In this document: positions 9,988-62,278 of the stretch, one piece after another
Layout: each line of letters begins with the position of its first letter
How positions within the stretch are numbered: the stretch's first letter is position 1
Assembly (NCBI GenBank): GCA_020832405.1
Contig: JAFIET010000001.1
Coordinates: forward strand, 62,001-126,000
Direction of reading: 5' to 3'
Source: Balneolales bacterium
GTDB lineage: Bacteria > Bacteroidota > Rhodothermia > Balneolales > Cyclonatronaceae
DNA length: 64,000 bases
Notes under the pieces: model-generated
Told to the model about the DNA's origin: nothing
The model's input: only the letters and a program-made list of their open reading frames with translations
Databases searched by the model: none
Position numbers and translations under genes: made by a program

Positions 9988-10129
9988 GACGGGAGTGTAT
10001 TTGCTGGTTTGCTTCGATTACTGCAAAGTTGCGAAAAATACAGATTATTCCCTTCTAACTCAATAAGGAAAGTAAGAGTTTTCAGCCCAACCGTTTCTGA
10101 GCTGCCTAAGTTATTTGAAGCAGGATGTT

Positions 10130-57715: not shown

Positions 57716-57860
57716 GGGGGATTTCCTGACGGACGCGGAAACCTTGCCCGGGCTGCTAATTTATGATTGTGTGACTGCCTTTTCCTTAGGCTCTAAGGCC
57801 TCTCTTAACACCTTGCTTTTCTAACCACCATTCGCGTATAAATTTACCCCGTTTTTTGGT

Positions 57861-57893
57861 GGATGATGTAATGCTCCACGCTGTTAAGTCCGT
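57861..57893. repeat. Left ~33-bp direct repeat bracketing the HTH-nucleotidyltransferase module
   Basis: It begins GGATGATGTAAT and ends GTTAAGTCCGT. It matches 59247-59279 in about 28 of 33 positions in the same orientation and overlaps the last codons of the nucleotidyltransferase frame. Both copies encode a similar LN-x-x-E-x-YII-x-Q peptide on the minus strand. Confidence 0.6.
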
Positions 57894-58590
57894 AAATGGC
57901 CATAAGACTGATGGAGTATTTGGTTGATTTTTTCTTCTAAAACCGGCAAACGTTCTGCTAACATCAGGGGATGAATGTGTGCTATTAAAACTTCCTGCAT
58001 CATGCCTTTACTGGCGATGTGTTGTAATTGCTCCCTGATAAAGGCAGCGATGCGGTGATCGTCTTTTTCTATTTCCTCAACTATTCCAAGCCGATTATCT
58101 AATACACAGATGATGTCTTCAATATCGTGGCTTGTGCGATAGTCGGAACCTCTGTTGTTAAAAGCCTCGAATTTGGTGGCTAAATAACAAGGTGCCGAAA
58201 GAATAGTAATGTGCTGATCTTTTGCTTTTGCCGTCCATAAATTTTCAAAACCTGTTTTATACCAACGGTTGGCAGGGCCTAACGGACCATCTTCGGTGGC
58301 TATAATATCTACCGGAATGTCTTTGTACTTGTAACTGCAAATGGCATGACCAAAGGGATCGGGATGAAAACGGAGTGCTCTCAATCTTTCTTGTACTTTT
58401 TCCCAGTGGCTGAGGCTGAGAATGTTTAAAGTGATATCAATATCCTGCGTAGGGCGAATTTCATCGGCTGCCGGATCATCGGTGTATAAACCCACCACTG
58501 CGCCCCCACAAATACCATTTGGTCTTTGATATCCCGCAGGGCTTCGGCCACTTCGGCTACTATGGCAATATTGATGGTTCTATTCTCCAA
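57884..58590 (-). pseudogene. AbiEii-like nucleotidyltransferase, broken by a one-base frameshift
   Basis: Read from a TTG at 58590 (MENRTINIAIVAEVAEAL, then LRDIKDQMVFVG), the frame runs to a G5 run (58503-58507); the remainder of the domain is in the next frame (VVGLYTDDPAADEIRPTQDIDI onward to 57884). One extra G would restore VFVGGAVVGLY. The DID and VDII residues are the nucleotidyltransferase triad. Homologues are toxins or defence proteins of the AbiEii/MNT class. The start overlaps the preceding HTH gene. It may be a decayed gene, a phase-variable locus or a sequencing error. Confidence 0.7.
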
Positions 58591-59104
58591 GTTCCAGGCG
58601 TTTTTTTAGTTCCTTCACTGCCAGCTCTCTTTCTCTGGCCCGGCCTACCCGCAAGGCATCTGCTAAAGCCAACAGTTCATGTAATTTTTCATCCTTCAAA
58701 GCTGCTTCAGGTATCGAAGGGTACAAAGGTGTTATGCCGTGCCCACGTACAGTTCCTTTGCCATAGGGCCAAACATACGCCTCTGTACTTTGTATTACAT
58801 CGCTTAGGGGTTTTGCAGAGTGCGAAGTAGGCATACCGCGTACCACGGCCCCCGGTTTAACGGGGAACACATACCTTAGCCCGTATTGCAAAAACTCAAG
58901 CAGTGCCATTTTCAACACCGTTTTGCCATTGTGAGCCAATAAGCCGGAATATTTACACCGGGCTACGGCTTCGCTCACTTCCGACTGGCTCAAACCCAGG
59001 GCCTCTGCTACCGGTTTTTGATTCCATGCAGGGTTATTATCGCTTACAATTTTAAGTAAGAGACAGACATCCTGCGGTTTCAGTTGCTGATTTTGTGATT
59101 TCAT
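58580..59104 (-). CDS. HTH-containing partner/antitoxin-like protein of the nucleotidyltransferase
   Basis: 174 residues from the ATG at 59104 (MKSQNQQLKPQDVCLLLK). The N-terminal winged helix (PVAEALGLSQSEVSEAVARCKYSGLL, residues about 30-60) is MarR-like; the C-terminal part has PTSHSAKPLSDVI, AYVWPYGKGTVRGHGITPLYPSIPEAAL and a basic helix. I recall this protein beside nucleotidyltransferases, an AbiEi/AbiEii-like arrangement. It should bind the two 28-bp operators upstream and regulate its own operon. A later ATG is not needed because the leader runs up to the operator. Confidence 0.7.
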   Translation of the reverse strand: MKSQNQQLKPQDVCLLLKIVSDNNPAWNQKPVAEALGLSQSEVSEAVARCKYSGLLAHNGKTVLKMALLEFLQYGLRYVFPVKPGAVVRGMPTSHSAKPLSDVIQSTEAYVWPYGKGTVRGHGITPLYPSIPEAALKDEKLHELLALADALRVGRARERELAVKELKKRLELGE

Positions 59105-59110
59105 ATCGAT

Positions 59111-59138
59111 TATATTGCGTATCGCGATTTGCAATATT
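59111..59138. promoter_or_regulatory. 28-bp operator copy 1, proximal to the HTH gene
   Basis: Outer dyad TATTGC/GCAATA encloses GTATCGCGATTT. Its left end is seven bases upstream of the HTH start codon. It is similar to the reverse complement of the 59177-59204 site at about 20 of 28 positions. Confidence 0.6.
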
Positions 59139-59176
59139 ACGAAATAAACCGGCCCCGGGAAACAGCTGTGCCGGAA

Positions 59177-59204
59177 AATATCGTGGATTACGATAGGCGA
59201 TATT
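59177..59204. promoter_or_regulatory. 28-bp operator copy 2, distal
   Basis: AATATCG at one end and CGATATT at the other enclose a TGGATTACGATAGG core. In inverted orientation it resembles the 59111 site; centre-to-centre spacing is 66 bases. Together they suggest cooperative autoregulation. Confidence 0.6.
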
Positions 59205-59246
59205 TTCTGCTCGCAAATTGGCAATCATACCCATAACTCAGCTGTT

Positions 59247-59279
59247 GGATGATGTAATACTCCGCCCTATTAAGTTCGT
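59247..59279. repeat. Right ~33-bp direct repeat
   Basis: GGATGATGTAAT at one end and ATTAAGTTCGT at the other; the partner of 57861-57893. Confidence 0.6.
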
Positions 59280-59507
59280 TGAATACAATAACTAAAAGAT
59301 TTGATTGATCAGCGATTTCTGGAGGGATTGGTAGCTTTCCATTACTGAAGCCATATTATCTGCGTTTGAGGGGAAAATTTTCATTGCATTAATCAACTCC
59401 ATTCTCATCGTTTAAAAACCCTGATCTGATAATCTCCAATAACCTTATAACTGACTCCGGGCATTTTTGTACGGATAGTTACCACTTGAACAGCACGAGT
59501 CGGGAGG
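59280..59507 (-). other. Gene-poor stretch with two tiny overlapping frames
   Basis: AT-rich compared with the flanks. On the minus strand a 26-codon frame (59485 to 59405, ending YQIRVFKR) overlaps by ATGA a 38-codon frame (59408 to 59292, with MKIFPSNADNMASVM). I recognise neither; they could be small genes or remnants of a larger gene lost with the insertion. Together with 59105-59279 this fills the gap between the HTH gene and the amidohydrolase. Confidence 0.3.
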
Positions 59508-59543
59508 AAAAACAACCTATGGGCAACCCCATAGGTTGTTTTT
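59508..59543. terminator. Strong terminator of the amidohydrolase gene
   Basis: AAAAACAACCTATGGG (59508-59523) and CCCATAGGTTGTTTTT (59528-59543) make a perfect 16-bp stem with a four-base loop and A/T runs in both directions. Confidence 0.9.
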
Positions 59544-59556
59544 GAAGTTCGAAACC

Positions 59557-61364: not shown

Positions 61365-61832
61365 CTATTTAGGCTTCGGAAAGAAAAAACGGTCGAGCCC
61401 GAGTTCCCGCTCATCGGCTATTTCAATCTCATGAAAAGCCTTCGAAGCCGGATTGAGCACATAATTGTATTCTTCTGGCACTACCGATGAAGGCACCCGA
61501 AACACGCAGCAGCCAGGGTCCCGCAGCAGTTCGTCGCCTAACTCCCTGGTAAAAGGATCCGGAGGAAAGGCATCCCAGCCCGAACTGAGTTCCCGAAGCG
61601 TGATGGTACGAACCGGCAGATAATCGGGCACATGAAGACTCAGCAGAACAAGGTCGTTGGGCATTTGCTTCAGGTTAATGTGCACGAGAACCTCAAGCTG
61701 ACACAGCGCCCGCGATTCGGACGCATAGAGCGCGGGTATGCCGCGGCTGTTCCAGCGGCCACCGGCTAATTTGGCGCCGGTACCGCTGAGGTCCTTTGCA
61801 TACAGCTCAGATGTAGCGCGGTAAACAAGCAT
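61365..61832 (-). CDS. RES-domain toxin (NAD+-consuming)
   Basis: A 155-residue RES protein. VYRATSELYAKDLSGTGAKLAGGRWNSRGIPALYASESRALCQLEVLVH holds the conserved Arg, Tyr and Glu/Ser positions. RES toxins split NAD+ and stop growth. It follows the Xre antitoxin gene by 11 bases, the standard order. The C-terminus (IEIADERELGLDRFFF) is typical. Intact and of normal length, so likely active when unbound. Confidence 0.9.
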   Translation of the reverse strand: MLVYRATSELYAKDLSGTGAKLAGGRWNSRGIPALYASESRALCQLEVLVHINLKQMPNDLVLLSLHVPDYLPVRTITLRELSSGWDAFPPDPFTRELGDELLRDPGCCVFRVPSSVVPEEYNYVLNPASKAFHEIEIADERELGLDRFFFPKPK

Positions 61833-61843
61833 GGCGGGCAGAC

Positions 61844-62278
61844 CTAAACAAACACGCCGTGCTCGATGCGGATGAGCTCATCGAGCACCATATCGAGGCC
61901 GAAGATGCTGTCGAGCAGGCTTAGCGGGCTTTCGCCGCCGAGGGCTGCCGAGCGATCGCGGAGCCAGCCGAAGAATTTGGCATCGCTGCCAAATACTGAG
62001 CGGCCCTTGTTGAAGAGCTGACCTATGCGCAGTAATTTCTCCGACTCGGGCACCGGAAAGCGGTGACCGCTTTTCTGATAGCGTTGCAGGCTGCGCTCGG
62101 ATATGCACAGGATGTGCGCCCAATCGCTGAGGGTGAGCGGCGCGGACTCCATGAGCTGATTGAGCTCGCTGATGGTTACGCCGGTTCTTGCCATGCCCAA
62201 AAATTTGCGGGAAGTTTTGTCGCTGAGGTAGGGCACAGCGGTATCTTCGAGGAGGTTTATGTGTTTGGGATTGCTCAT
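61844..62278 (-). CDS. Xre/MbcA/ParS antitoxin of a RES-Xre pair
   Basis: A 144-residue antitoxin. The N-terminal HTH region (LTLSDWAHILCISERSLQRYQ, residues about 48-68) recognises DNA; the C-terminal MbcA/ParS toxin-binding domain has SEKLLRIGQLFNKGRSVFGSDAKFFGWL and LDSIFGLDMVLDELIRIEHGV. It should neutralise the RES toxin and repress the operon through the inverted repeat at 62321-62357. Confidence 0.9.
   Translation of the reverse strand: MSNPKHINLLEDTAVPYLSDKTSRKFLGMARTGVTISELNQLMESAPLTLSDWAHILCISERSLQRYQKSGHRFPVPESEKLLRIGQLFNKGRSVFGSDAKFFGWLRDRSAALGGESPLSLLDSIFGLDMVLDELIRIEHGVFV

What the first reader, a model, noticed from the sequence alone, without database searches (positions are those of the whole stretch)
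57884..58590. Nucleotidyltransferase toxin-like gene interrupted inside a G-run that encodes its catalytic Gly-Gly
The minus strand codes the same domain in two frames that meet at a G5 run (58503-58507). A sixth G would give an intact VFVGGAVVGLY, so the lesion falls exactly in the catalytic GG motif. Phase variation by slippage, a selected loss of a toxic activity, and a sequencing error are all possible.
Basis: partly seen in the sequence, partly recalled or inferred. Interest (0 to 1): 0.75.

Follow-up and report, generated by a model that had tools for sequence, protein, structure and literature searches.

The report
Recently broken toxin beside intact antitoxin
A bacterial self-poisoning gene, left behind with its antidote gene after a DNA-restriction system around them was lost, carries a one-base shift that destroys its catalytic centre; this looks like an ordinary recent inactivation (or, less likely, a sequencing error), not a genetic switch.

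Summary
The minus strand holds an AbiEii-like nucleotidyltransferase gene (57884-58590, TTG start). Its two frames meet at a G5 run (58503-58507), inside Gly-Gly motif I. Every intact relative examined (12 close full-length genes, 26 genes at the motif) is one base longer there, and none starts at the internal GTG.

It is the second gene of a two-gene module (PADLOC candidate PDC-M21). Its partner, an HTH antitoxin-like gene (58580-59104), is intact, as are two palindromic operators. In 9 of 16 close relatives the pair lies directly upstream of a type I restriction hsdR gene (three also show hsdM and hsdS upstream). The window keeps only an HsdS tail and two 18-19-codon hsdR starts, so it is a restriction-system remnant in a low-GC insert absent from a syntenic sibling.

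Phase variation is not supported. G5 is common here (61 G/C runs of exactly 5 in 64 kb), relatives have no G run above 4, and none uses GGG for the first glycine, so the run may be a product of the lesion. The toxin's dN/dS on this branch (0.15) equals its relatives', so the break is recent or an error. Best reading: recent toxin knockout in an orphaned module.

The parts
57884..58590 (-). nucleotidyltransferase (AbiEii-like, PDC-M21B) gene, frameshifted; TTG start 58590 overlaps the stop of the partner gene
   Evidence: the overlap CTTGGAGAATAG is kept in most relatives
58503..58507 (-). G5 run where the two frames meet, inside motif I (VFVGG)
58426..58590 (-). upstream frame: 54-codon peptide that leaves the toxin frame at the G5 run and then stops
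57884..58498 (-). downstream frame: motif II (R...DID), motif III (KFEAFNNR) and motif IV (HDIED) intact; lacks motif I
   Evidence: motifs as defined in PMC3985639
58580..59104 (-). partner gene, HTH antitoxin-like (PDC-M21A), intact, 174 aa plus stop
59111..59138 (-). operator palindrome O1 AATATTGCAAATCGCGATACGCAATATA, 6 bp before the partner gene's ATG; identical in L020
59177..59204 (-). second, weaker operator-like palindrome O2, centre 66 bp upstream of O1; the same 65-bp spacing in L024, L027, L032 and L033
59236..59289 (-). fragment of an hsdR start (IVFNELNRAEYYIIQQLS), upstream copy of the flanking direct repeat
57847..57903 (-). fragment of an hsdR start (MAIYGLNSVEHYIIHQKTG, then stop), downstream copy of the flanking direct repeat
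59295..59400 (-). remnant of an HsdS C-terminus (...ESYQSLQKSLINQIF, then stop)
   Evidence: last 11 residues identical to L026 and L032 HsdS
57716..59556 (.). foreign low-GC insert (about 40-50% GC in a mostly 60% GC neighbourhood) between two syntenic genes; absent from sibling G093

Best explanation
The site is the remnant of a horizontally acquired type I restriction-modification operon that carried an AbiEii-like toxin-antitoxin module (PDC-M21 A and B) directly upstream of hsdR. The restriction genes have been lost, leaving an HsdS tail, two hsdR start fragments and the module. The toxin gene then recently lost one base within motif I, so no catalytically competent toxin is made. The intact partner and its operators most likely still form a self-repressing antitoxin unit. 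Shown here: the frameshift, the intact partner, the flanking restriction remnants, the conserved gene order in relatives. Inferred: toxicity and antitoxin function of this family, autorepression at the palindromes, and that the deletion is real and inactivating.
For: Frames and break. Relatives intact and one base longer at the same codons. Family: PDC-M21B 1.1e-38 and PDC-M21A 1.7e-46; intact relative L021 passes the Pfam AbiEii cut-off, 24.7 against 22.5 bits. Motif I is needed for AbiEii toxicity (PMC3985639). Partner intact, 91-94% identical to L020 and L021. Operators kept. hsdR directly downstream in 9 of 16 close relatives, HsdM and HsdS upstream in three. HsdS tail and hsdR starts in the window; no cognate hsdR in the genome, only distant ones. 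Insert absent in the syntenic sibling. No other frameshift in the window against that sibling. Toxin branch dN/dS 0.15, 95% interval 0.08-0.29, against 0.16 and 0.15 for L020 and L021, so the break is recent.
Against: No reads or second strain were available, so the base call is unverified. The absence of relaxed selection fits an error as well as a recent mutation. A -1 slip of the ribosome on the G run could in principle still give some full-length product.
Confidence: 0.7

Rival explanations
1. Sequencing or assembly error: the gene is intact in the cell and the module is functional.
For: Homopolymer length is a classic error type; the toxin shows purifying selection equal to its relatives; the assembly is a 188-contig draft.
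Against: No other frameshift in about 31,000 aligned residues of window genes against sibling G093 (overlapping ORFs counted), although the window has 71 G/C runs of 5 or more. A G5 run is short for such an error.
Confidence: 0.2
2. Phase variation: replicative slippage in the G run switches the toxin on and off.
For: The break is at a mononucleotide run inside a gene whose loss would be cheap.
Against: G5 is short and common in this window (61 G/C runs of exactly 5); no relative has a G run above 4 in this motif and none uses GGG for the first glycine. The tract is therefore not a conserved switch and may itself result from the lesion.
Confidence: 0.04
3. Translational recoding or transcriptional slippage on the G run yields a little full-length toxin; low output would suit a toxic enzyme.
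For: A tRNA-Gly reading GGG could re-pair one base back on GGG, and the next codons would read GGC GCA GTG, giving VGGAVV (sequence).
Against: The run is not conserved in relatives, no stimulatory element was identified by eye, and all intact relatives make the protein in one frame.
Confidence: 0.03
4. The shorter protein from GTG 58498 is a functional variant, for example a non-catalytic regulator.
For: The ORF of 204 codons is open and keeps motifs II-IV.
Against: No relative found starts there, there is no credible start signal beyond the G run itself, and motif I is absent.
Confidence: 0.03

Closest known systems
PADLOC candidate PDC-M21 (A and B)
   Same: Both genes match the two models strongly, side by side on one strand
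   Different: The B gene here is frameshifted; no experimental study of PDC-M21 was found in the library searched
AbiE type IV toxin-antitoxin (AbiEi/AbiEii; PMC3985639)
   Same: Two-gene order antitoxin-toxin, nucleotidyltransferase with motifs I-IV in intact relatives, paired palindromes before the operon
   Different: The partner hits no AbiEi Pfam family at E up to 1; Gly-Gly to DhD spacing is 19 residues against 15 in AbiEii; in the window motif I is lost
DarTG2 embedded between hsdS and hsdR of an E. coli type I system (PMC12255303)
   Same: A toxin-antitoxin pair sits between hsdS and hsdR, as in relatives L026, L027 and L032
   Different: Unrelated toxin; in the window the restriction genes are gone
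Orphan antitoxins (Klebsiella survey, PMC7192599)
   Same: An antitoxin without a functional toxin partner, a common outcome
   Different: Here the toxin reading frame is still nearly complete

Membership tests
PDC-M21 | Adjacent genes matching models PDC-M21A and PDC-M21B | tested here: met
   1.7e-46 and 1.1e-38
AbiEii nucleotidyltransferase family (PF08843) | Profile match above the curated cut-off | tested here: inconclusive
   Downstream frame alone 20.7 bits, below the 22.5 cut-off; intact relative L021 24.7 bits, above it
AbiEii nucleotidyltransferase family (PF08843) | Motif I hG[G/S] in frame with motif II DhD | tested here: not met
   Met in intact relatives, broken in the window
AbiEii nucleotidyltransferase family (PF08843) | Motif II (R, DhD), motif III (K..A.R) and motif IV (DxxD) | tested here: met
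   EIRPTQDID, KFEAFNNR, HDIED in the window against the motifs given in PMC3985639; the basic residue before motif IV is H
AbiE type IV system | AbiEi-type antitoxin | tested here: not met
   only weak HTH matches, no AbiEi family
AbiE type IV system | Toxicity of the toxin and neutralisation without toxin binding | not testable with these tools
   needs an experiment
Nucleotidyltransferase fold | Structural match to solved nucleotidyltransferases | tested here: inconclusive
   Model of L021, pLDDT 71.5; best match 5uvd, E 1.2e-4, TM about 0.4
Phase-variable gene | Long repeat tract, conserved or variable in length | tested here: not met
   mixtures in reads not testable
Type I RM-embedded module | hsdM/hsdS upstream and hsdR downstream | tested here: inconclusive
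   Met in full in L026, L027, L032; the window itself has only an HsdS tail and hsdR start fragments

The most novel reading that the evidence does not exclude
The module travels as a cassette bounded by copies of the first 16-20 codons of hsdR, so that it can enter or leave restriction operons by recombination between these repeats while hsdR stays intact. In the operon it couples hsdR translation to an antitoxin-repressed promoter. The window would show what remains when the restriction genes are lost, with the toxin then silenced.
Probability: 0.25. Interest if true: 0.55.

Novelty: new member of a known kind. Interest (0 to 1): 0.3.

Why it matters
It shows one end point of a toxin-antitoxin module carried by a restriction system: the restriction genes go, the toxin is disabled in its catalytic motif, and the antitoxin with its operators stays. 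The hsdR-start repeats in several hosts suggest how such modules may enter and leave restriction operons. The frameshift itself is ordinary.

Tried and rejected
(1) Long decay of the toxin: first suggested by residues such as S to G, G to R and M to I, but window and L020 each have three departures at invariant sites, VVG or VIG also occurs in intact L005, L006 and L009, and branch dN/dS is normal. (2) Generally poor assembly: no other frameshift in the window; the apparent ones lie upstream of gene starts. (3) Phage carriage: no relative in IMG/VR by the pattern scan or in the phage collection; plasmid relatives are all below 60% identity. (6) Literature on PDC-M21: nothing found.

Full report
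Observation. The minus strand at 57884-58590 carries one protein domain in two frames that meet at the G5 run 58503-58507. The upstream frame starts at TTG 58590, which overlaps the stop of the gene before it, and ends 54 codons later out of frame. The downstream ORF (GTG 58498 to 57884) is 204 codons long and carries the rest of the domain.

Family. The downstream ORF matches PADLOC PDC-M21B (1.1e-38, profile positions 38-230), so its first 37 profile positions are missing; the gene before it matches PDC-M21A (1.7e-46). Pfam AbiEii is a weak match for the fragment but passes its cut-off for the intact relative L021. Intact relatives have the four AbiEii motifs defined in PMC3985639. The window keeps motifs II, III and IV and loses motif I. 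In that paper the motif I mutants G49A and G49A/G50A were non-toxic. A predicted structure of L021's protein is of modest confidence and its best solved match is a nucleotidyltransferase-like protein.

Homologues at the break. Sixteen close relatives came from Bacteroidota genomes, the best 83-85% identical. In 26 relatives the two glycines and the alanine after them are read in one frame; the longest G run is 4 and the first glycine codon is never GGG. The window lacks one base at that place. Which base was lost cannot be told: loss of the third base of the first glycine codon gives G5 whatever that base was. The G run is therefore not needed as a cause. The window holds 61 G/C runs of exactly 5 and ten longer ones.

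Real or error. The sibling genome G093, one contig, is syntenic along the window and mostly about 70-84% identical at the DNA level. Comparing ORFs both ways found no frameshifted gene in the window. The toxin's branch dN/dS is 0.15 (0.08-0.29), the same as L020 and L021; the partner's branch value, worked out by the same distances, is about 0.04. The gene was under purifying selection until recently. This fits a recent mutation or an error; I favour the mutation.

Partner and control region. The partner gene is intact and 91-94% identical to L020 and L021. Just before its ATG lies AATATTGCAAATCGCGATACGCAATATA, identical in L020, with a second, weaker palindrome centred 66 bp further upstream. 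Several relatives have two palindromes at 65 bp spacing, with changed but still symmetric sequence. AbiEi represses its own promoter at paired inverted repeats (PMC3985639), so autorepression is the likely role here; this is inference.

Restriction remnant. In 9 of 16 close relatives (L020, L022-L027, L029, L032) the gene directly downstream is hsdR; in the seven where spacing was read, the toxin stop and the hsdR ATG lie within a few bases or overlap. L026, L027 and L032 also show HsdM and HsdS upstream. In the window the same places hold an HsdS tail (SLQKSLINQIF), an 18-codon hsdR start upstream of the module and a 19-codon hsdR start after it. These two fragments contain the 37-bp direct repeat. 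Upstream copies at about the same distance from the partner gene occur in L020, L021, L027 and L032. L021 is a second copy outside an operon with both fragments. L076, a related operon, has hsdS directly followed by hsdR without the module. The genome has other, distant hsdR genes but not the cognate one. The insert is of low GC and absent from G093.

Known context. A toxin-antitoxin pair between hsdS and hsdR is known for DarTG2 (PMC12255303). That paper cites work on defences embedded in other immune systems; I believe, without having tested it, that the PDC models come from that work. Orphan antitoxins are common (PMC7192599).

Verdict. A correct observation of an ordinary event in an informative setting: a disabled toxin beside an intact antitoxin in the remains of a type I restriction operon. 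Phase variation is not supported.

Noticed in passing
61365-62278 (-): A second, intact toxin-antitoxin pair, RES/Xre (ParT/ParS type), lies about 3 kb from the module.
   Followed up: no
about 9990-10110 (-): About 100 bp upstream of an ffh-like gene are nearly identical between the window and sibling G093, apparently more conserved than the gene itself; possibly a conserved leader. The ffh name is by recall of the sequence, not tested.
   Followed up: no
59508-59543: A perfect 16-bp inverted repeat with a 4-base loop and A/T runs at its ends, likely a two-way terminator at the edge of the insert.
   Followed up: no
L034:2908-3600: Another relative has its toxin gene broken at a different place while its partner gene is open; L035 is decayed in both genes.
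   Followed up: partly
L077:2119-3614: A related hsdR is preceded by two other genes instead of the PDC-M21 pair.
   Followed up: no
L020:3580-3830: Between toxin and hsdR are repeated copies of a short element that interrupts the hsdR start.
   Followed up: no
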